From positions 4,576,857 through 4,640,856 of the forward strand of contig OY725491.1 of NCBI GenBank assembly GCA_963281255.1: DNA of 64,000 nucleotides. Direction: 5' to 3'. Below, in pieces: positions 3,776 to 56,562 of the stretch (position 1 is its first letter; each line of letters starts with the position of its first letter). Under the pieces are notes generated by a model. That model had not been told where the DNA came from, searched no databases, and was given only the letters and a program-made list of their open reading frames with translations. A program made the translations under genes and the position numbers. This DNA comes from Aphrocallistes beatrix (lineage: Eukaryota; Porifera; Hexactinellida; Sceptrulophora; Aphrocallistidae).

Positions 3776-4358
3776 TCAATTTTGACAATTTCTCAGTTTT
3801 GACTTCTACACCGACCATGGTTTAACGTCAAGGTTCGTATCAATAATCTTTCGATAGCAAATAGTGGTAAATTTTTTGCATATTTAAAACATAATTTCCT
3901 AAATAACCGGGTTAAACAGGTTATCGGCTCATGAAATATAGACCAGATCCAAGCCTGGTTAGGATGAGATGAACTTATAAAGCCCTTCCACCTCCTCAGC
4001 CTCTCAGTGGCTTCGAGTTAGCGCCACCACTGTAATATGGAAATTACTTAGTTATTTAATTTTATTTATATATACTGGTAATATATTTATATAACCACGC
4101 TCAAAACCAAGTAACGTGGAATATTATGATATGCCGAATAAAAAAGGCGCCTTTTTTAAGTTATACAATTTTGATAATAATAAAAGAAAGTTGTTTTCAT
4201 ATATAAATAATCCAAGTATTAGAAGAAATTCTTCAATATACTTATTTATACAACCTAAAATAATCAAGAGGTAATAACAATGATGTTTGTTTTTATAGTA
4301 AAAAATTATATTCAAGAAGTCTTATCATAATCAATATGTAATACCATGTATAATCTTC
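3776..4358. other. 3' flank of the vWA frame, no gene seen
   Basis: AT-rich sequence downstream (minus-strand sense) of the vWA frame. It would contain the 3' untranslated region and poly(A) site of that gene. I see no further gene. Confidence 0.4.
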
Positions 4359-5921
4359 TTATGAACAATCTCGATAATTGATGAAAATTTGCATCACTGC
4401 ATCATTAACCTGTTCTTTTCCACATTTAGTAAAACCTTTACATAGATAATCTAGCTTTCTTTTCATGGTAGATTCAAACTCAATCCAATTTGAATCACCA
4501 GTATTAATACCATGATATTCAATTTCTTTCTCTCGAAAACTGTCCCAAACATCTCTATCCCAATCATATTTGCATAATTTAGAACAGCAACAACAATGGT
4601 CTGGATTGCTATTGTTGTGATGTAGTCTGTAACTAGGAAAGTTTCCATGGGGTGGCGCGTCGAATAAATGAACTACAATACGCCTGGTCTTAGAGTCGTT
4701 TCTTTCCCAATTTGCAAGGAGGCAAATAGCCAGTCCGTCTAGAGAAGCTTCTGGAACATCTCCTCCACCTTCGGTACAAACATTTCCTAAAAAATTGATA
4801 ATATCTTCTTCCCTCGTTGAAAAGTGAAAACCTTTTGGAAATTGTTCTAAAATATTTGCGTCACAATGATCTCGGTATATTACGACACGAAATTCTATCA
4901 GTTTGTTGGATTTTTTGTAAGAATTAACAATAGATTGAACAGAAATTCTGACTTTCTCGATATCCGTTACCATTGACCCGGTTCCATCAATCACGAAACA
5001 AATCTGAAATTTTGTTATTTCTGAGGATTCTAATTCTGAATTATTTTCTTGGTAAGGTCTAAATGTTATCCTTACACCACGATAGTATTTCAAGATTTCC
5101 CTACCAAAAAGATCCCAAACTTTTATTAAATTTGTAGTCATATTTTCTTTATCTGAATTATCAGCACTAAGGTCTCGGTCCCAATCCCAGTTCCCACTTG
5201 AAAATAATTTAAAATCTCCCCACTTGATCAACCTTCCAGGTAATGCAACAACCATATCATCTTCGTAATCCTCGCAACGAAAAAAGAGAGCAGAATGTTC
5301 TTTATCATTACACCATGCCATTCCTCCCATTGAAGCAAACTGGTGACCAGATGTGACACAGTTACCGTAATGTTTGAATTTCTGTCTACAAAACTTTCCA
5401 CAACAAGGACATTTATTAGTGCAACCTAATGATTGCGTTATTAAGTGCATTTTTACATTCTTATCGATATACTGAGTAAACTCATAGTCTAAAATTTGAA
5501 TTCTGCTTTGTTCAAGAGTTCGTTTAAAATTATTGCTATATGTATAGAGGTTGAAAATAATTTCAGATTTAAACATTCTAGTTCCTTGAACAACTCTGAA
5601 CAAGTCATCTGAAATATGAATACAATTGAGAAATCTTTCATCTTGTATAATCCAAGGACATGGACGCATTCTTATTCCTTCATAATCAAAAGTTTCAGAA
5701 AATTTTATTTTTAAGTCTGATAAACTAAAATTCGGGTTCATTAACATGTTCAAGAAAAGTGTCATTGTTCGGTATGGAGACTCTGTCAATTGAAAACTAT
5801 CAATTTCTCCATCTTGTTTGTCTAGTGTTTGGAACATTTTAGCAGCGTTGAAGAGATTCTTATCCTTTTCGTTCATTAAAGCCAAAAGTTTTTCTAACTC
5901 TTCAACTAATTCATTGATCAT
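4359..5921 (-). CDS. Cys/His cluster plus vWA (MIDAS) domain, C-terminal half of the VLIG-type gene
   Basis: 520 codons. Residues 1-30 are a probable coiled coil. Residues 167-215 hold a Cys/His-rich cluster (CTNKCPCCGKFC, then HYGNC, SGHQ, WC and FRC), plausibly zinc-binding. Residues 305 to about 510 are a von Willebrand A domain of the kind found in vWA/alpha-kinase-type proteins: MIDAS motif DGTGSM at 312-317, YRDH at 349, GGGDVPEA at 385-392 and DAPPHG at 421-426. All metal-coordinating motifs look intact. The frame is the same as that of the upstream GTPase (5985-10187). Only one TAG and 21 further sense codons separate them, so the Met used here is probably internal to a longer protein and not a true start. 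The vWA domain suggests Mg2+-dependent protein binding, in the cytosol since no signal peptide or membrane segment is seen. A separate gene starting at 5921 is possible but less likely. Confidence 0.85.
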   Translation of the reverse strand: MINELVEELEKLLALMNEKDKNLFNAAKMFQTLDKQDGEIDSFQLTESPYRTMTLFLNMLMNPNFSLSDLKIKFSETFDYEGIRMRPCPWIIQDERFLNCIHISDDLFRVVQGTRMFKSEIIFNLYTYSNNFKRTLEQSRIQILDYEFTQYIDKNVKMHLITQSLGCTNKCPCCGKFCRQKFKHYGNCVTSGHQFASMGGMAWCNDKEHSALFFRCEDYEDDMVVALPGRLIKWGDFKLFSSGNWDWDRDLSADNSDKENMTTNLIKVWDLFGREILKYYRGVRITFRPYQENNSELESSEITKFQICFVIDGTGSMVTDIEKVRISVQSIVNSYKKSNKLIEFRVVIYRDHCDANILEQFPKGFHFSTREEDIINFLGNVCTEGGGDVPEASLDGLAICLLANWERNDSKTRRIVVHLFDAPPHGNFPSYRLHHNNSNPDHCCCCSKLCKYDWDRDVWDSFREKEIEYHGINTGDSNWIEFESTMKRKLDYLCKGFTKCGKEQVNDAVMQIFINYRDCS

Positions 5922-5984
5922 ATTTTGTTGCTTTTGGATTGCTTCTTGAATGATTTCTTCTTTATTCGAATCTATAAATTCATT

Positions 5985-6041
5985 CTATCTCTTCGCAAAC
6001 ACTATTTTAAGAGCATTATTTCGATTGCAGTAATATTGTAC
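5985..6041 (-). other. in-frame TAG between GTPase and vWA frames; candidate 57-nt intron
   Basis: The TAG at 5985-5987 (minus strand) is the only stop in about 1942 codons. After it the frame runs NEFIDSNKEE and onward into the vWA frame. A segment 6041-5985 starts with GT (GTACAA) and ends with AG (AGATAG), is 57 nt long and sits in phase 0, so removing it would delete the stop and keep frame. The donor is weak. Readthrough, recent nonsense mutation or assembly error remain equal alternatives. A 53-nt intron with good signals occurs elsewhere in the window, so this size is plausible. Confidence 0.4.
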
Positions 6042-9000
6042 AATAAATTCTCCAGCATTATTTTCGACATTCTCACCATTATTGATAGCATCCAAAACGA
6101 TCCTTTCAGCTTCTGATGCTAAAGAATCATATTTGAAAAACTCCATCATACGATCCAATCTATTATTTGTAGCGCGTATTAGAGAATATTCTGCCCGCTC
6201 ATTGAAATTCTTCAACAATAATCTTCCAAATTTCTCTGATATTTTGATGTCATTCATACAAGGTTCTGAAGGATTTTGACCTATAATATTAGAGCATATT
6301 ACCCTGGAAGTTTCGACTTTTGTGATGAAATAATCCTTCAATCTATCTTTTTCAGCGATTATCTTTTTACGATTATCTAAATATAATTCCCACTTTTTAG
6401 AGTAATAACTCTGGAAAGCCAATGAAAAAATGTAGGAAGCTATGTTTCGACATGCATACAAGGTTAATTCGGCCCCTATGTAACTGATCTCGTGATTAAA
6501 GATGTCAATTCTCTTCTGAAATACATCTGCTATTAACTTTATTGTAACAGGTTTCATTTCCGGGTCTTTTTCCATAACTCTCTTGACATCATCGACCAAA
6601 TTTTTAAAGATTTTAGGGACAGTAATGCCATACAAGTGTTTAGGATTTCCATAGTAATCATCACTAACACTTTGTATCATTTGTTTACTCATTAAAGTGC
6701 CGACGAGTTTACTAATTTGTGTATTTGGGCTGAGATATCCCCAATCAATGTCATGATCAGGATAGTACCCAGAACATGACTGTAACAAAGGAACGCAATC
6801 ATCTGGCACCCATGGATGTTTGTATATGGCTTTATTGTTAGGAAAATATCTGATGTACTTAGATTCTTGACCCTCTGTTGAGTGTACATAATAAAAATAA
6901 TTCTCAGTTAGATACTCTAAATGTGGAGAATGGAAATAAGGTTGAATATCTTTGAGTGGATAACATTGCTTTGCTGGATAAAAATATGGCTCTGCTGTCT
7001 CATATAACTTTGTCAAACTCTGGACAATTTCTTCTCGCATTTTTTTAATAATTTCATCTGAATTATATTCGCATTGAGAGTACATTTCAAGTATTTCCTG
7101 CTGATTAATTAACTTTACTTCGTTTGAGAATGCTAAATAAAAGTCTTGCAGATTACTTTCTCTGTATGTTTCTTCAAAATCATCATTTTCGAATTTTTCT
7201 TTCCACAGTATTTCAAATTCTTTATTCAAATTTTCCTGACTAAAATGAATGAATCTCTTTGAATCACTTGTAATATCTTTTCTAAAGTCATCTAAGCATT
7301 CTTTTCTTTTTCTCTGGTGATATATTTCACTTGTTCGAGTATTAAGAAATATTTTGTTTATTTTTTCAGTAGATATCAATCTATCCAGGCGACCTCTATG
7401 CTCCTTCACAATTAATCTGGATTCACTAAGATCAGGTGCATTTTCTGCATATTTTTGGAGACATTGTGCTTTAATTGTATCGAAATTATTTTCGAAATCT
7501 TGGGTCTTTTTATTTATTTCATCCTTTAATTCTGATGGTTTAAGCATCTGCAAATCAGAAATTTCATCTGAAATTATTTCCAGTCTTTTTTTGAGTTCAT
7601 CTTCCCTAGAATGGATCATACTTTTCATCAGTTCTTCTACAAACTTGTCCAGCTGTTCATGATCTTTCACTTCATTCAAATCTTTATATCTGACAATGTC
7701 TTGGAATCGTATTATAGAATTCCACGTTCCCCCTGCCATGCTGAGCCATTCACTCATGCTAGTGAATGTTGGACGATTGTTTGGCGGACTATCTTTGAGT
7801 TGGTTAAATATAGACTTTCTTAGCTCTGAACATTCAAGGGCGAAATTTGATGCTGGGATTTGTTTGATCACTCTCTTATCGAATATCTCTTCTGTTGGAG
7901 TATCGATACTAATGGTGTTGAATGCATTGGGTAAGGTAAATAGATCTTCCTCAGTCAGATTTATTTGATCGGATATTTTTATTTTTTTGGAGTGTTTTGT
8001 GTCTTCAATTTCGTCATCCAAACTTTTTATCAAAATCTTTAAAGCATCTTTTCGCTTTGATAAATTCGGATCAGCAACTTTATTTAGTACAAAGATGATC
8101 TTAGGCAAGGTAGCACGGTTAACTCTTAAGTGGTTGAGTGAAAATGCACAAATCTTTAACAACTCTTTAATTCTGACATCGATTTCTCCTGGTAAATTTA
8201 TTATGACAATGTTTGATACAGATAAACAGAATAATATCAGAGTTCTATCAAAGTGTATGTTTGATGCATTCGTAATTTCTTCCCTTTCAGTAGCTTCAAT
8301 TCCTTCTGTGTCTATTATTAGAAAAAACTTTGAATCATTTATCGGTTCGCTTAGTTCCATTACAGAAGCATATACTCCTCTGGTACATCTCCCAGAGCTT
8401 GTGATAAACTTACAGCCAAACACGTAGTTCAAGAGAGTTGACTTCCCAGAGCTCTGAGGACCAATAATACTCAGCACAATTGGAGCTTCAGTAATTCTTC
8501 CAGTGCCTTTATTATAACGTTGCACGAAGTCAGTTTGTCTAACATGAAAATGTCGCAACAAATCATTCAACTCTTTACTGAAAAATACGAGATTATCTCC
8601 ATCGATCAATTCGAATGGTTCGCCACTTTGAACGAGATTACACATACTTCTACTCAGTTTTTCAAAATATTCATTTCTGGGAGAAACTGAATTTTTGTTC
8701 CAATATTTCTGTGCAAGTATAGCTTCTCTCCACAGAATTTCAACTGAATATTTATCATTGGATTGCTGCTTTGGTTTGTTTGAAATACTTACCTCATTGG
8801 TTATACGCTGAAGCTCTAGTACCAGTTTCCCTAAAATCAATATGCAATTTTTATCCGATATAATTTTCAAAAAGATTTCATTTACATAGCATTGCTGTAC
8901 GCTATTTAAATTTTTAAAACAATCACTTCGCTGTATATTCAATTTCTCCACAGTCTCTTGTTTATCCTGACTGTGACTGGATATTTGATAGGTTTTTTTC

Positions 9001-10187
9001 ATTAGGTCTATAAATATTGGATAATAGCTTAGAAATTCAAAATTAATCCCTTCACTTGATCTTTGTATTACTATTCTATCAATAATTTCTTCCACTAATT
9101 TTTGTGAATCTTCTATCTCTTCCCAAAGATTTGCATCGTAATCTTTAATAAGTTCTTCAAGATTTTTTGAAGTAAATTTGGGAATTGTTTTTCCTAGCAG
9201 TATCAGCTCTTTTCCCACCTCTTTTAATTCTCGCTTCATCAACTTTAATCTGTGTGATTCTTCTTTGAGGTTAGGTATTTTAATGATTTTATATTTTATT
9301 CTCCTGAACTCTTTATATGTTTTCTGCTTTTCTGAAGCGTCTCTAATAAATACATATATATATTTATCTTTAAGATTCATTGACTCTAATTCTTTGTCAA
9401 TTTTCTCGAAGTTTACAAGCAAATCAGATTCAAGAATGTGTACAATGAGAATATTAACATGCTTTAAAAGGAAATTAATAACATTTATTGGAGTCGGTGT
9501 GTGACAATCAAAAAATGCCCAATCTGTGAAATACTTTTCACAATTATCTCCAGGATAAAAATTCTTTGTCAGCTTTAAATCAATAGAATTTGAATGAAAG
9601 CAACTATCCTGAGGATTGCTTTCAGTGAAATTTAACTCAAATAACATGTCAAGCAGTTCTGACTTTCCAATTGCACTATTAGCAGCACCTCCTAAACCGA
9701 ATGAAATGATCGCATTATGCGGAGTGAGAGAATACCATAGTTCTTTGCAGATTGTGAATCGTGGCTCGTGGAAGGATGTATCAATAATCGGAAAATAGAA
9801 CGGAATTGGATTATTGAAAGAGTACTGGTTGATATAAATCGACTTGAGAAAAAAATCTGAATTTTGAAAAAGTAAATGAAACAAATCATTTGATGATTTT
9901 ATTACTGATTCGTCAAGGTTAATTAGTTTGAGTAGTTCTTGGAAGGATAAATTACAATTCAAGTGGTATAGTGATAATGGAACTATGTCTTGAAAATTCG
10001 TTTGTGTTGATTTAGCTGCCATTTTTAGTTGTTCGGTATACGAGTCGCAGTGCAACATTCTATATTGAGATATCGTAATTGGTGTTGAAACATATCTATC
10101 GCAATATTTTTTTATCTTAGAAAGCTTTTGAGCTTGATTTGTTCTGAGATAATCTTCATTTATTTTCTTTACTTTGGATTTCTTCAT
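5985..10187 (-). CDS. very large inducible GTPase (VLIG/GVIN/URGCP-like)
   Basis: A 1400-codon uninterrupted frame starting at ATG 10187. A first nucleotide-binding-like region lies near residues 160-185 (FGLGGAANSAIGKS, keeping GKS but lacking a standard P-loop start). The main G domain follows: P-loop GPQSSGKS near residue 575, switch/G3 LIIDTEGIEATERE near 622, and a G4-like LNKVAD near 702. The rest is mostly alpha-helical and charged, with probable coiled coils. The tandem layout, DTEG motif and single huge exon match the VLIG family, which in vertebrates is interferon-inducible; an immune role here is inference. No membrane segment or signal peptide is seen, so a cytosolic protein is expected. 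The frame ends at TAG (5987-5985), but the same frame stays open for another 541 codons through the vWA region, making this probably the N-terminal three-quarters of one protein. Confidence 0.85.
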   Translation of the reverse strand: MKKSKVKKINEDYLRTNQAQKLSKIKKYCDRYVSTPITISQYRMLHCDSYTEQLKMAAKSTQTNFQDIVPLSLYHLNCNLSFQELLKLINLDESVIKSSNDLFHLLFQNSDFFLKSIYINQYSFNNPIPFYFPIIDTSFHEPRFTICKELWYSLTPHNAIISFGLGGAANSAIGKSELLDMLFELNFTESNPQDSCFHSNSIDLKLTKNFYPGDNCEKYFTDWAFFDCHTPTPINVINFLLKHVNILIVHILESDLLVNFEKIDKELESMNLKDKYIYVFIRDASEKQKTYKEFRRIKYKIIKIPNLKEESHRLKLMKRELKEVGKELILLGKTIPKFTSKNLEELIKDYDANLWEEIEDSQKLVEEIIDRIVIQRSSEGINFEFLSYYPIFIDLMKKTYQISSHSQDKQETVEKLNIQRSDCFKNLNSVQQCYVNEIFLKIISDKNCILILGKLVLELQRITNEVSISNKPKQQSNDKYSVEILWREAILAQKYWNKNSVSPRNEYFEKLSRSMCNLVQSGEPFELIDGDNLVFFSKELNDLLRHFHVRQTDFVQRYNKGTGRITEAPIVLSIIGPQSSGKSTLLNYVFGCKFITSSGRCTRGVYASVMELSEPINDSKFFLIIDTEGIEATEREEITNASNIHFDRTLILFCLSVSNIVIINLPGEIDVRIKELLKICAFSLNHLRVNRATLPKIIFVLNKVADPNLSKRKDALKILIKSLDDEIEDTKHSKKIKISDQINLTEEDLFTLPNAFNTISIDTPTEEIFDKRVIKQIPASNFALECSELRKSIFNQLKDSPPNNRPTFTSMSEWLSMAGGTWNSIIRFQDIVRYKDLNEVKDHEQLDKFVEELMKSMIHSREDELKKRLEIISDEISDLQMLKPSELKDEINKKTQDFENNFDTIKAQCLQKYAENAPDLSESRLIVKEHRGRLDRLISTEKINKIFLNTRTSEIYHQRKRKECLDDFRKDITSDSKRFIHFSQENLNKEFEILWKEKFENDDFEETYRESNLQDFYLAFSNEVKLINQQEILEMYSQCEYNSDEIIKKMREEIVQSLTKLYETAEPYFYPAKQCYPLKDIQPYFHSPHLEYLTENYFYYVHSTEGQESKYIRYFPNNKAIYKHPWVPDDCVPLLQSCSGYYPDHDIDWGYLSPNTQISKLVGTLMSKQMIQSVSDDYYGNPKHLYGITVPKIFKNLVDDVKRVMEKDPEMKPVTIKLIADVFQKRIDIFNHEISYIGAELTLYACRNIASYIFSLAFQSYYSKKWELYLDNRKKIIAEKDRLKDYFITKVETSRVICSNIIGQNPSEPCMNDIKISEKFGRLLLKNFNERAEYSLIRATNNRLDRMMEFFKYDSLASEAERIVLDAINNGENVENNAGEFIVQYYCNRNNALKIVFAKR

Positions 10188-10701
10188 TTAATCACAATTG
10201 AATCAGTAAAAATGAAAATATTATTTGCTTACTCTCATCAAGGATGTAAAAAAACTAGGCAATATATGGTATCAATATTATAAATATAGTTTGGGAAAGC
10301 CTCTGTTTAAAATCACATAATGAGAAGCAAACGATCACCATTGTCCACTTAAATCAGATCTCACATTAGAATGGACAATTTGGAACAGGGATGCGGTCAA
10401 AGGATTTGAATAAATGCAAGATTAGTATAGTACGCGTAATAGTTCTGGCAACGAATATGGGCACTTTGTATCAATGTACGTATATATAAATTATTAAGGT
10501 CTGTCGCAGGTATTTGGAGGTACAAATGACCAAAATGACTATGTGTGTGCATCTTGTGTGGTATTCAGAGGTAACACTAATCCTGTGATCATACAATGAA
10601 CATTTACTTAGTTCTAATTCATGTTACGATTCATTTCTAATCTGTACACAATGACGATCTTTTTGAGTGACGATACTAGTGTGATTTCCTCTTTTATATA
10701 A
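10188..10701. other. upstream region of the GTPase gene
   Basis: AT-rich sequence 5' of the GTPase start. It should hold the promoter, but I see no clear TATA box or other motif that decides a start. Confidence 0.3.
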
Positions 10702-38317: not shown

Positions 38318-39622
38318 CGAGGGGTGCCCGATAAGTTTTTAGCCTTGAACATATATTAAGTCATTATTAACGAACCATACATTTTTCTTATAACTCGATA
38401 CTTTACTAACTGACTCTGTAAATCCTAGCTCTCTACTATATATTTTTCTGAAGTTTTGCTACATTTTGTATGATGGCTCAGGCAAATATTACTGAAAATA
38501 TTATCCTCACAAAAGAGCAAATTCGGGCAATTATTCTTTTTCAATTTAAAATGGATAAAACAATTGATGATTGTTACCAACAGTTAATACAAGCTTTCGG
38601 TAACGATGTTACATCTCTTGCTACTGTAAAAAACTGGTACAGAGAGTTTAGAAGAGGAAATTTTGACCTTACTGACAAACCTAGACCAGGGTCGCCGTTG
38701 ACTGCTTCGACCCCAGAGAACATCAGCGCAATTGAGAAGTTGGTACTTAATGATAAGCACATAACCTATAGACAGATTCAGTACGAGTTGGGTATCAGTA
38801 ATGATGTGATCCAATTCATCCTACACTAAATTCTACACTTAACAAAAGTCTGTGCAAGGTGGATTCCTCATTTGCTCAAACCTGAGCAGAAAGTAGCCCG
38901 AATTGATTGGTGCAAGAAAATGAAGTCAAAATTCAAAAAAGGCACTTCTCCTCTGGTTTCCAAAGTGATTACGGGTGATGAAACATGGATTTATCATTAT
39001 GACCCAGAATCCAAAGAGCAGAGCCGTCAGTGGACTCCAATAGGTGAACCTCCCCCTCAAAAAGTTAGGAAAAGTCAGTATTCTAAGAAGCAAATGTATG
39101 CAATATTCTTTGATCCTAAAGGTATTCGTGCAGTAGTTGCACTAGAGAGTGGAAAAACAGTCTCTTCAGAATGGTACACCACTAGTTGCCTCCCAGAACT
39201 CATTCAAAATGTTCATAAAATGCGACCAGAAGATGGGACAAGGGGTTTACTGCTGCATCATGATAATGCAAGTTCACATAAGGCCCTGAAAACAAGGAAA
39301 TTTATTGAAGAAACTGGCTTCGAGGAGTTATCTCACCCACCCTACAGCCCAGATTTAGCTCCATGTGACTTCTGGCTCTTTCCTCGTATTAAGAAGAAGT
39401 TGAAGGGGAGGGTTTTCAGCAGCAATGATGAAGTGCGGTCAGCATTATCAGAGGCTTTGGAGGACATCCGAGAAAATGAGTTCGCCGAAGCTTTTGATAG
39501 TTGGTTTTGCAGAATGGACAAGTGTATTAAAGCTGGAGGAGAGTATTTTGAACAATTATAATAATGCATTCTATTATAATGCTGTTTTCGAATCAAGGCT
39601 AAAAACTTATCGGGCACCCCTC
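38318..39622 (+). mobile_element. mariner element, nearly intact
   Basis: 1305 bp bounded by inverted repeats that begin CGAGGGGTGCCCGATAAG and extend through TTTTTAGCCTTG (about 30 bp, almost perfect), flanked by TA on both sides. It encodes a full-length mariner transposase frame with a single stop codon. The length, TIRs and TA duplication are typical of mariner elements. It looks recent. Confidence 0.95.
38470..39561 (+). pseudogene. mariner transposase (D,D34D) with one in-frame stop
   Basis: The two frames 38470-38829 and 38872-39561 are in the same phase and separated only by a TAA at 38827-38829, after which ILHLTKVCARW continues in frame. Together they form about 363 codons, close to the usual 340-360. 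The N-terminal half has two helix-turn-helix segments (VKNWYREFRRGNFDL, then a GRP-like linker KPRPGSP). The catalytic triad is intact: Asp in ITGDETWIYHYD, Asp in LLHHDNAS and Asp in LAPCDFW. The last two are separated by 34 residues, the D34D signature. The WVPHEL motif appears as RWIPHLL and YSPDLAP is exact. The stop inactivates this copy unless read through. Confidence 0.95.
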
Positions 39623-41437: not shown

Positions 41438-42694
41438 TTAATCCCTAGAATAAATCTGCAGACCGTAGTCCTTATTCCTAGATACAACAACTAATGTTTG
41501 TTTGTTAGTGAGAGCTACTCCATGTGGATAATGAAGCATTCCCACTTCGTGACCTTGCCGCCCTAAAGTGTGGAGGAGAGTTGCTTCTTTTGAAAATATT
41601 TCGATTTGGCTACTCGAAGTATCGCTGAGAAGCAAATTACAGTCAGAATCCAGACTGAAAAACAAAGGGTCTCTAACCTGCATTCCAATTCCACGCGTGA
41701 TTAGAGATCGTAATAGGTCTCCGGAATAAGAAAAAACGCTAACGCAAGGAGAGCTCTGGCAGAGAACAAACACTTCGACAGGAGTCAGCTTTATGTCACG
41801 TGGTCGTAGCATGGAGAGGTGTGAGATGTGACGCAGGTAGTAGAGGTCGCTGTTCAGGATTTGGATTCGATTGTTGTTGTAATCAGTAACGAAGACATCT
41901 CCGTTGGTAGAGACAGCGAGCTGTCTAGACTTATCGAACTGTCCCAAACCAGACCCTAGGCCCCCCAGCCCAGCGACAAGGTAGATGTCGGATTCCACTT
42001 TGAAATGGAATACGAAGTCTTTCAGTGTGTCCGTTACATACACATTGTCATTATGGACCGCTATACCCCATGGATTCCTCATGTCTTCGTGAGAGAATGT
42101 GTTCAAGAACTCTCCTGTCTCCGAGAAGATGGACACGCGTGAGATGTCGTCTTGATGCTCCCAGCTAGACCACCCCTCAGCGACATAAATCTGGTTTGTA
42201 CGGGAATCTACTGCGACACCATGAGGATGCCAGAGTTCTCCCGGCGCTCTTCCTCTCCTGGCTACAGCCATTGTAGGTCGCATTTCTCGGTATCGGGGTA
42301 CAGCTGGCTCTTCTACCTCTGCTACCTCTCCCACGTCTCGGATCATCTGCTCCAGCTCTCCAGTCTCACCGCGGAACAAAAGGCGTGTGTTGGGGTAAGG
42401 TCTACGAATATCTGCTAGCTTTTCATCCAATTTATCGAGAATCTCTAGCTGCGTTTCGCGAAGTGGGTTTATTTGGAGTCTACTCTCGGTTTCGGCTCTC
42501 AATCCGATCAACTCTTCCTCTTCTCTTGCGCTGGCTACTGGCCTGCCAGCCATCTCTATGCGGGCGTCACGAGCTATTTCGAGGAGCGACAATCGTCTCT
42601 GGTTGAGACAAGCGATCAAGTGATCGAAGAAATGGTTGATGTGTTTCTCTGCGGAGTCTGTGGTTTGTGGAATGTCGGAAAATTGAACTGCCAT
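41438..42694 (-). CDS. coiled-coil and NHL-repeat protein (TRIM2/3/71-like, without RING or B-box)
   Basis: 418 codons in one exon. Residues 10-125 form an alpha-helical coiled coil (NQRRLSLLEIARDARIEM and on). From about 150 come NHL-type beta-propeller blades: PGELWHPHGVAVDSRTNQIY (NHL 1), MRNPWGIAVHNDNVYVTD (NHL 2), GQFDKSRQLAVSTNGDVFVT (NHL 3), two weaker blades, and MLHYPHGVALTNKQTLVVV (last). TRIM-NHL proteins bind RNA or protein partners through the propeller and dimerise through the coiled coil. This one has no RING or B-box, so ubiquitin-ligase activity is not expected. Very similar short coiled-coil/NHL proteins are, as I recall, abundant in glass sponges. No signal peptide, so probably cytosolic. 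The start is chosen as the first Met of the frame; a TATATTTATAG stretch lies about 10 bp upstream and may belong to the promoter. Base composition is clearly more GC-rich than the flanks, as expected for a real gene. Confidence 0.85.
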   Translation of the reverse strand: MAVQFSDIPQTTDSAEKHINHFFDHLIACLNQRRLSLLEIARDARIEMAGRPVASAREEEELIGLRAETESRLQINPLRETQLEILDKLDEKLADIRRPYPNTRLLFRGETGELEQMIRDVGEVAEVEEPAVPRYREMRPTMAVARRGRAPGELWHPHGVAVDSRTNQIYVAEGWSSWEHQDDISRVSIFSETGEFLNTFSHEDMRNPWGIAVHNDNVYVTDTLKDFVFHFKVESDIYLVAGLGGLGSGLGQFDKSRQLAVSTNGDVFVTDYNNNRIQILNSDLYYLRHISHLSMLRPRDIKLTPVEVFVLCQSSPCVSVFSYSGDLLRSLITRGIGMQVRDPLFFSLDSDCNLLLSDTSSSQIEIFSKEATLLHTLGRQGHEVGMLHYPHGVALTNKQTLVVVSRNKDYGLQIYSRD

Positions 42695-44401
42695 TCCGGA
42701 ACTATAAATATAGGATAATGTATTGCTTTTAAGAAGGAAGTGGTTAGTGGATAAATACTAGAGATTGTGTCTCGTTCAATTTATAGGAGAATATATATCA
42801 ATTAATGACCAAATCAAATTATTGAGACTAAATTGGATTATTATATTGTAAGGTAAATTGCGTCATCTATTTTATGTGGTTATGACTAATGTTGAGTGTC
42901 TGCATTACATTCTCAAATAGATACGTCTGCTCAGACACAATAATATACTACAGATTGATAAATCCCGTTTCTAGGTAGATCAGACCACATTTGAGTGACT
43001 CAATCTCTATTTAAGGAACTAATCTTCTCGAACATTTGAAGAAATTTGTACCAATCAGAAGTACTAATTAATTCGCTTAATTAAACATTATTTACATTTG
43101 TACAAAGACTAATTAGAATGAATACAGAGAGTTAATGATTTTCAACATAAAAAGTCCCTCACAGATGGGATGAGAGTGTGCTTCCACCTTAATGAGATAA
43201 TGCACATGTGTAGCTCATCATCCCAGGAATATGGGAACACACTCTGTGAGAGGATTTTTTGATATTGAATAATTTATAAATCATATGTCCACTTCAATAA
43301 CTTCCTTTTAAAAGATATTAAACTTGAAATTACGAATAATTAATTGAAATTATATTTAGGATATTATAGGATAAAATTTAATATAAAGTCTCATTATCTA
43401 AATTCGGATTTTTCGTCTCTAACCGCTTATATATGATCTAGGAAACCCGACTTTAAAATACCTAAAAATGTTATATGATTGTAATCGTCGCTTGTCAGCT
43501 GTTTGAAGAGAGGAGAGAACTGGACTTCTCTGAGTGTGAGGATTTCTGGATAGAGTTATAGAGTTAAGGTCACCACGTATTCCATGAGCTGAATATATAT
43601 TCCCTACTCTAGGAAAATTGTAGGATCACATCATTTAGTCTTGTATTAAATCCGTGGTTTTTGTTTTATTTGAAATGAATTATCCTGTGTCTACTGTGTA
43701 GCATCCACCTCACTCAGCTTCTGCACTGCACGGAGATATCGCTGTGAAGGAGAGAGAATGCATTCAGAAGAACTCAGTTTCTGGAGAGCGAGCTTCTCTA
43801 TCTGGACGTGCTAATAGTCAAGCGAGAGGGACTTAAGAAACTAATGAGGCAAATATTAACAAACATTAAAATGGAGAAATAAATACGGAATTTATACATT
43901 GAGTATTTCCCCATGGATAGGAATTATCTAGGAGTGCGAGATGCTCCTTTAAGCATACGATTTGAAGTCCAATCACTTTTAAGAGCGATAAATTTAGGAA
44001 TAGTCTCTTATACCATGATATTAACTATCAATTTAAGCACATTAAAATTTACAGAATTGAGATTAGCAGCGTATCTCCGGTGAGCTGTATAATACTCTGG
44101 ATAGTGTATAGTCCCAAGTAACCCGCTTCAAGCGGGTCAGACCCTTCTTGATATGGAAGCCCAGATTTGATGGAACCTAGGGACTAAGGTGAATGTTTAG
44201 TATGGATGATACAATAGCATGTTAATTGTATTATTATGACATAATTTGAATGGGGAGAGTCCGCAAATGGAGACTGATGAGGAGACGCAATGTCCTGGAC
44301 CTCGCAGCACAAGTGAATACATAATAGAGCTAACCCACTGCTTAATTCTATTAAAAATACTCCGCCACTAAATGCCATGTTCTGATTAACCCATACAAAT
44401 T
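42695..44401. other. 1.7 kb without a supported gene
   Basis: AT-rich. 43134-43270 contains an imperfect palindrome (TCCCTCACAGATGGGATGAG and CACTCTGTGAGAGGATT). 43690-43870 is related to 46974-47135. No protein frame of note. Confidence 0.4.
43690..43870 (+). repeat. dispersed repeat, copy B1
   Basis: TGTAGCATCCACCTCACTCAG, GATATCGCTGTG, GAGAATGCATTCAGA and ACGTGCTAATAGTCAAGC recur in order at 46974-47135. It has the size of a SINE, but I see no clear tRNA-like promoter boxes. Confidence 0.6.
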
Positions 44402-55446: not shown

Positions 55447-55740
55447 TACTCTAGGGGTCAGAATAAACGGGCCCCCCGCTTGTTAATTTTTGAAAAAGTT
55501 TACGCCCCCCGCCTACTCCAACCCCCCCGTTTATTAAATTTTATACTAATTGAAACTTGAATTTTACCAAACCAAAGTTTCTGACTTGATGTTCTGAATC
55601 AATTAGAATTCACTATTATAATATTGTACTTTATTCTAATTAAGTAGGCGTAAATATATACTAGAATTTCTTTTTGTTGATTTTAATAATTAAATAGTAA
55701 TTAAATCCTAATAATTAAATTATATTAGCATGACCCCCCC
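55447..55740. mobile_element. C/G-tract-ended insertion in the NLR gene
   Basis: A segment bounded by GGGGTCAGAATAAACGGGCC on the left and GCATGACCCCCCCCCCCCCC on the right (a similar GGGGTCA end inverted), with further C-runs inside (GCCCCCCGCC, ACCCCCCCGT). It interrupts the NACHT coding sequence. Target duplication not resolved. Confidence 0.5.
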
Positions 55741-56509
55741 CCCCCCGCCTCGTGTAGATGGAACAGTTCTGTTAATTGCTTAAGTTGAGCCTCTTTCTTC
55801 AACTGAGAAATGAAATATTTATCACGATTTTTCGGTGAGAAACCGAGGACCTGATAGAAATGGTTGATCTTGAGGTCATGGGTGGAAGAGATGGAGATGT
55901 AAGCTCCTGGTCTACTGATCAGGATTATGGTGGATTGTGTCAGACATCTCCGATTGAGAAGGAGGTAAAGTAGTGTATTTTGAAATTGGACTTGCTGGGT
56001 GAATTCATCTAAGCTGTCGATGATTATCAAAAGTTGGTGTCCATCTGTTTCGAGGATATGCTTGGAGAGTTGTTTCGTCCAACTGGGACCGATCGGCATC
56101 GAAAGGGAGAGCCATTCCTGAATGAAATCTCCGTTTACGGACAATCCTGCCTTTTCCCTCGACTGTTCCATTTGATGCCACTCCTGATGACGACAAGGAA
56201 TAGTGACGCAGTAAGAAAATTGTGAGAGTTCATTGCTACCAAATTGGATGGTAGTTCGATGGCAGAGGAATGTTTTCCCGCTACCAGGGTTGCCTATCAG
56301 ACACCATATTTGTGGAGTAGACGCATCGCATTGCATTAATTCTTCAGTAAAGTCAACTGAGACTATTTCTATCTCTTTGTTAGCGATCTTTCTGAGGAAG
56401 GCAATTTCATTGTACGTAGTTTCATCCTCCAGTTTCACTTCATGAGGCTCGCCTTTAACAATTGTGAGAGGAATATACACCGATTCTATATCTACATCTT
56501 CCTTGTCGT

Positions 56510-56562
56510 CTAGAACTTGTTTGATGTGCCTGTTTCAGAGTTACAATATACACAATACTCAC
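56510..56562 (-). other. 53-nt intron of the NLR gene
   Basis: On the minus strand it starts GTGAGTATTG and ends AAGTTCTAG. Removing it joins phase-1 ends so that EEG/HDKEDVD continues in frame from the linker into the NACHT domain; without splicing the frame hits a stop at once. Donor and acceptor both match the consensus. Confidence 0.75.

What the first reader, a model, noticed from the sequence alone, without database searches (positions are those of the whole stretch)
4359..10187. VLIG-type GTPase and vWA domain in one frame broken by a single TAG
Two large minus-strand frames (1400 and 520 codons) share the same phase, and the only stop between them is a TAG at 5985-5987. The 21 codons after it are all sense and lead into a continuous charged, coiled-coil-like stretch. 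The product would be about 1940 residues: degenerate GTPase-like region, VLIG G domain, helical arms, Cys/His cluster and vwkA-type vWA domain. A GTPase of this class carrying a MIDAS-type vWA at its end is an unusual combination in what looks like an immune gene. The stop could be read through, spliced out, a new nonsense allele or an error.
Basis: partly seen in the sequence, partly recalled or inferred. Interest (0 to 1): 0.85.

Follow-up and report, generated by a model that had tools for sequence, protein, structure and literature searches.

The report
Broken copy of giant GTPase gene
One of two neighbouring copies of a giant GTPase gene, from a large family in which many members end in a von Willebrand A domain, has recently gained a premature stop; the family's domain combination is of some interest, but the stop itself looks ordinary.

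Summary
In detail: two minus-strand frames in one phase (5985-10187 and 4359-5984) are separated by a single TAG. A neighbouring copy about 33 kb away (91.4% identical over 6,254 aligned bases) encodes the whole protein as one 1,934-residue frame. At the column of the TAG, 19 of 19 aligned relatives have an aromatic sense codon. Of 32 other scored relatives considered, 26 have both halves in one open frame; the other 6 are those with stops inside. So it is not an intron, not two ancestral genes, and not TAG recoding: 5 of 20 family ends examined are TAG. Best reading: a nonsense allele or young pseudogene. After the TAG there is no further stop, gaps against the neighbour are multiples of three, and no loss of constraint is detectable. 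An assembly error cannot be excluded. The real content is the family: URGCP/VLIG-type G domain, helical region, Cys/His cluster and a C-terminal part recognised as vWA in 25 places, beside 18 high-scoring URGCP-type places with no VWA_4 match within 77 kb. The host was not identified.

The parts
5985..10187 (-). First half of the broken gene: 1,400 codons ending at the TAG (5985-5987)
   Evidence: 88-89% identical to the neighbouring copy
4359..5984 (-). Second half of the same frame, 541 codons to the TAA: helical part, Cys/His cluster, vWA
   Evidence: continuous with the first half in the neighbouring copy
9660..9704 (-). First P-loop-like motif (FGLG...GKS) of the presumed degenerate N-terminal GTPase
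   Evidence: present in 20 of 20 aligned members; weak profile similarity to the G domain
8016..8801 (-). URGCP/VLIG-type G domain; P-loop GPQSSGKS at 8439-8462
   Evidence: PF25683, 111.9 bits; P-loop in 20 of 20 aligned, one with N for S
5985..5987 (-). Premature TAG at a column where 19 of 19 other aligned members have an aromatic sense codon
5340..5423 (-). Cys/His cluster (C..CPCCxKxC...C...GHQ), probable zinc site
   Evidence: present in 20 of 20 aligned members; zinc binding inferred
4713..5003 (-). vWA domain (VWA_4 match, profile positions 2-91 of 169); MIDAS-type DGTGSM begins at 4988, GGGDxPEA follows
10188..10353 (-). 5' flank shared with the neighbouring copy (about 166 bases)
4114..4358 (-). 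3' flank shared with the neighbouring copy (about 245 bases)

Best explanation
A tandem duplicate of a giant-GTPase gene that has recently acquired a nonsense mutation. Shown: the intact neighbour, the sense codon at that column in the aligned relatives, the unbroken and still constrained-looking frame after the stop. Inferred: the allele makes at most a 1,400-residue protein with the GTPase and helical region but without the Cys/His cluster and the vWA, and so is non-functional or altered. The intact family members probably work like vertebrate GVIN and GBP proteins: GTP-driven dimerisation or coat formation in cell-autonomous defence, with the vWA as a metal-dependent binding head for a partner or target.
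For: Continuous 1,934-residue neighbouring copy on the same contig, 91.4% identical over 6,254 aligned bases. Aromatic sense codon at the TAG column in 19 of 19 relatives. In a base-level alignment of the two coding regions all 7 gaps (one of them at the very end) are multiples of three. dN/dS is 0.376 before the stop (bootstrap 0.286-0.479) and 0.456 after it (0.298-0.743). Changes that could be assigned to one copy are not enriched in the window copy after the stop (8 against 6 at the loosest setting; 10 against 13 before the stop; Fisher p 0.51). If the second half had drifted since the duplication (about 6-7.5% divergence), a mean of 5.6-7.0 new stops would be expected, and none is seen in 0.2-0.1% of simulated runs. 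Broken members are not rare: 6 of 34 rows hold TAA or TGA inside the match. For the mode of action: GVIN1 coats bacteria (PMC11974893, abstract and passages read).
Against: No reads or transcripts, so a base-calling error or a heterozygous allele cannot be told from a fixed mutation. Constraint still visible after the stop is also what read-through would leave. The assignment test has little power (118 of 141 and 46 of 60 differences undecided). The human gene filed as pseudogene GVINP1 proved functional (PMC11974893, passages). The defence role is by analogy only.
Confidence: 0.75

Rival explanations
1. Base error in the assembly or an allele present in only some chromosomes; the gene is intact in the organism.
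For: One stop in an otherwise normal frame; no relaxation of constraint after it; the only other match of this stretch found in the genome is the neighbouring copy, so there is no second allele to compare.
Against: The assembly has few, long contigs (28 contigs, 100.5 Mb), which suggests accurate long reads, in which single-base errors are rare (recalled, not tested); other family members also carry stops.
Confidence: 0.14
2. The truncated GTPase is a functional product in its own right, for example a regulator of full-length partners by hetero-dimerisation.
For: First half constrained (dN/dS 0.376); G domain nearly free of silent change between the copies (4 of 217 same-residue codons differ at codons 500-720).
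Against: The second half shows a similar dN/dS (0.456, overlapping intervals), so selection seems to have kept the full length until recently.
Confidence: 0.07
3. Programmed read-through or RNA editing of the TAG gives two products, with and without the vWA.
For: Frame after the stop intact and constrained-looking.
Against: None of 19 aligned relatives has a stop there; 5 of 20 family ends examined are TAG; TAG AAT is not a read-through context known to me (recalled).
Confidence: 0.03
4. The TAG lies in an intron or the two frames are separate genes.
For: A methionine codon at 5921 could start the second frame.
Against: The neighbour is one frame; 25 residues on either side of the stop align without gaps to 19 relatives; 26 of 32 relatives considered have both halves in one frame.
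Confidence: 0.01

Closest known systems
VLIG/GVIN giant GTPases (human GVIN1; PMC11974893, abstract and passages read)
   Same: Long uninterrupted coding frame, URGCP_GTPase domain over the Pfam cut-off, possibly an N-terminal GTPase-like region before the main one (weak), and a C-terminal domain after it
   Different: Second half with a VWA_4 match; G-domain scores of 31-115 bits in the 63 weaker rows of this genome, against 289-405 bits in 18 stronger rows that I take to be the canonical members and that have no VWA_4 match within 77 kb
VWA_4 proteins
   Same: vWA over the Pfam cut-off with DxTxS-type MIDAS
   Different: No alpha-kinase domain found by Pfam; match covers only profile positions 2-91 of 169
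Dynamin-like GTPases (RHD3/atlastin, dynamin)
   Same: RHD3_GTPase matches just over its cut-off (47.3 against 42.4 bits)
   Different: Best match is URGCP_GTPase; Dynamin_N is below its cut-off (23 against 27 bits)

Membership tests
VLIG/URGCP-like giant GTPases | URGCP_GTPase domain over the curated cut-off | tested here: met
   111.9 bits, cut-off 55; 110.2 in the neighbour
VLIG/URGCP-like giant GTPases | Very long coding frame without introns (recalled as typical) | tested here: met
   1,934 residues open in the neighbour; open frames up to 2,430 in relatives; transcripts not available
VLIG/URGCP-like giant GTPases | Second, N-terminal large-GTPase domain, as predicted for GVIN1 (PMC11974893, passage) | tested here: inconclusive
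   hhalign 23%, E 0.00087 for one comparison, controls 0.2% and 0.1%; no Pfam GTPase match there
VLIG/URGCP-like giant GTPases | Induction by infection or interferon | not testable with these tools
   no expression data
vWA domain with MIDAS | vWA over cut-off and DxT/SxS with downstream acidic motif | tested here: met
   46.9 bits, cut-off 27; DGTGSM and GGGDVPEA; fold not predicted
VwkA alpha-kinases | alpha-kinase domain | tested here: not met
   no such Pfam match in either half, nor in the neighbour, L032 or L003, the last cut before its end

The most novel reading that the evidence does not exclude
A large, divergent branch of giant immune-type GTPases in which GTP-driven assembly is coupled to a metal-dependent vWA binding head, expanded to dozens of partly tandem genes that split into MIDAS-intact and MIDAS-degenerate groups and turn over by duplication, conversion and breakage, like a repertoire of pathogen sensors or effectors.
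Probability: 0.4. Interest if true: 0.55.

Novelty: new variant of a known kind. Interest (0 to 1): 0.3.

Why it matters
The stop teaches little by itself beyond birth and death of genes in a large family. The family matters more: GVIN1 was only recently shown to coat bacteria in human cells (PMC11974893, abstract), and an expanded branch with an added MIDAS-type vWA would offer a testable idea of what such GTPases recognise. Ten paper searches listed no paper whose title or abstract start describes this VLIG plus vWA combination; four of them matched far more papers than were listed, and protein databases were not searchable, so it may well be described or annotated elsewhere.

Tried and rejected
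Bdelloid rotifer as host: the spliced-leader sequence that I recalled for that group has 0 exact matches in the genome; the host stays unidentified. From memory, the NACHT and NHL frames and the genome size suggest an animal, perhaps a sponge, but this was not tested. Viral relatives: none confirmed among 129 pattern matches in viral contigs. Solved structures: no significant relative by sequence (best E 0.27). Rfam (gathering scores) and tRNA scans of the window: nothing. Gene conversion over the G domain (112 identical codons in a row, reached by 0 of 5000 shuffles) is not separated from strong constraint.

Rows dropped: the family alignment uses 20 of 31 sequences at hand (window, L031, L032, L003-L030). 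Left out were L006, L011, L021, L024 and L028 (stops in the match), L014 and L027 (stops in the translated stretch), L008 and L026 (dropped together with L027 without a check of their own), and L020 and L022 (never entered). One search scored 33 of 132 candidates, so family counts are lower bounds. In 2 of the 26 joined frames (C4:659931, C6:3416752) the second-half match ends before the vWA part. In one search, 5 of the 10 rows without the second MIDAS motif are blank there, most likely because the fetched DNA ends.

Full report
What is there. On the minus strand of the window, 5985-10187 is a 1,400-codon frame that ends in TAG, and 4359-5984 continues in the same phase for 541 codons to a TAA. 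Pfam finds a URGCP-like GTPase domain (111.9 bits, cut-off 55) in the first and a VWA_4 domain (46.9 bits, cut-off 27) in the second.

The neighbour. The window lies at 4576857-4640856 of contig C4 of a 100.5-Mb genome in 28 contigs. About 33 kb away on the same contig and strand is a second copy in which the whole protein is one frame of 1,934 residues. The two copies share one alignment of 6,254 columns at 91.4% identity, that is the gene, about 166 bases before it and about 245 after it; the coding part alone is 93.0% identical (5,391 of 5,799 aligned bases). The stretch round the stop (401 bases) has these two matches in the genome and no other was found.

The family. A protein search with the first half scored 33 of 132 candidates and gave 34 rows; a search with the second half gave 76 rows from 72 candidates. 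Leaving out the window copy and one short fragment, all 32 other first-half rows have a second-half match within 1.5 kb downstream on the same strand: in 26 both lie in one open frame (same frame length in both calls), and the other 6 are the six rows with stops inside the match. In 2 of the 26 the second-half match ends before the vWA part. The vWA itself varies more than the layout: VWA_4 reaches 11 of the 26 joined frames (frame lengths). Pfam confirms both domains in the neighbour, L032 and L003. In the same genome PF25683 gives 81 rows, 76 over its cut-off: 18 score 289-405 bits and the remaining 63 score 31-115 bits. Of 28 VWA_4 rows, 25 lie in second halves listed; none lies within 77 kb of one of the 18 strong GTPase places.

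The stop. In an alignment of the window copy with 19 relatives the column of the TAG holds an aromatic residue in 19 of 19, the same one in 18, and the 25 residues on either side align without gaps. This leaves no room for an intron or for two ancestral genes. TAG is not recoded: of 18 family ends fetched, 4 are TAG, 6 TAA and 8 TGA; with L032 (TAG) and the neighbour (TAA) that makes 5 TAG of 20. Some of these ends belong to frames that are themselves shorter than full length. Other members carry stops of other kinds: 6 of 34 rows, with TAA or TGA.

How old it is. Between the two copies dS is 0.157 before and 0.119 after the stop, dN/dS 0.376 (bootstrap 0.286-0.479) and 0.456 (0.298-0.743). 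The gaps of that count were placed on a protein alignment and are whole codons by construction; a base-level alignment also gives only gaps of 3, 6 and 12 bases, seven in all. Of differences that the family can assign at the loosest setting, 10 are in the window copy and 13 in the neighbour before the stop, 8 and 6 after it (Fisher p 0.51); the two stricter settings (p 0.45, 0.38) and the four nearest relatives (18 against 12 before, 8 against 8 after, p 0.55; p 1.0 at the strict setting) show no difference either. Most differences could not be assigned (118 of 141 and 46 of 60 at the loosest setting), so the power is low. A simulation of drift by substitution in the second half, started from the neighbour's sequence, gives on average 2.8 new stops at 3% divergence (none in 4.6% of 1,000 runs) and 5.6 at 6% (none in 0.2%); none is seen. 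Half of the silent divergence is about 6-8%, so the second half was probably under selection for much of the time since the duplication. The stop is therefore young, or not real, or tolerated. I weigh an inactive or altered nonsense allele 0.75, error or partial allele 0.14, a functional short product 0.07, read-through or editing 0.03.

How the intact protein may work. In 20 of 20 aligned members the G-domain P-loop (one with N for S), the Cys/His cluster and a first FGLG...GKS motif are present. The region round the first motif resembles the G domain weakly (23%, E 0.00087 for one comparison; controls 0.2% and 0.1%), which would fit the two large-GTPase domains predicted for human GVIN1 (PMC11974893, passages). 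GVIN1 forms coats round bacteria in the cytosol (abstract). By analogy, not by test, I propose GTP-driven assembly with the vWA as a binding head. Ten of 20 aligned members have DGT-S-M plus GGGD-PEA, the other ten do not, five of these being blank at the second motif, most likely because the fetched DNA ends; the family may thus hold metal-binding and non-binding forms.

Limits. No reads, transcripts, eukaryote protein databases or structure predictions were at hand; the host species is unknown to me. Literature: ten searches, seen as listings only, apart from PMC11974893, a preprint (abstract and passages).

Noticed in passing
window 8232-8567 and codons 500-720 of the gene: Silent divergence between the two tandem copies falls to about 0.03 at codons 500-700 (4 of 217 same-residue codons differ at 500-720) against 0.065-0.33 in the other 100-codon windows; 112 codons in a row are identical. 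Looks like gene conversion or strong constraint.
   Followed up: partly
G000, 81 rows of PF25683: Two groups of URGCP-type GTPases in one genome: 18 strong matches with no VWA_4 match within 77 kb, and 63 weaker ones, many followed by the second half of this family.
   Followed up: partly
L003 13-7125: This relative has roughly 470 more residues at its N terminus than the window copy, with short repeats (DESDIASKETGTLPKG) near the start.
   Followed up: no
window 38452-39561 +: Mariner/Mos1-like transposase in two adjoining frames of one phase, with HTH_48 in the first and DDE/Transposase_1 in the second.
   Followed up: no
window 55725-56534 -: Frame with a NACHT domain, possibly another immune-type gene.
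   Followed up: no
window 41438-42757 -: NHL-repeat beta-propeller protein in one frame.
   Followed up: no
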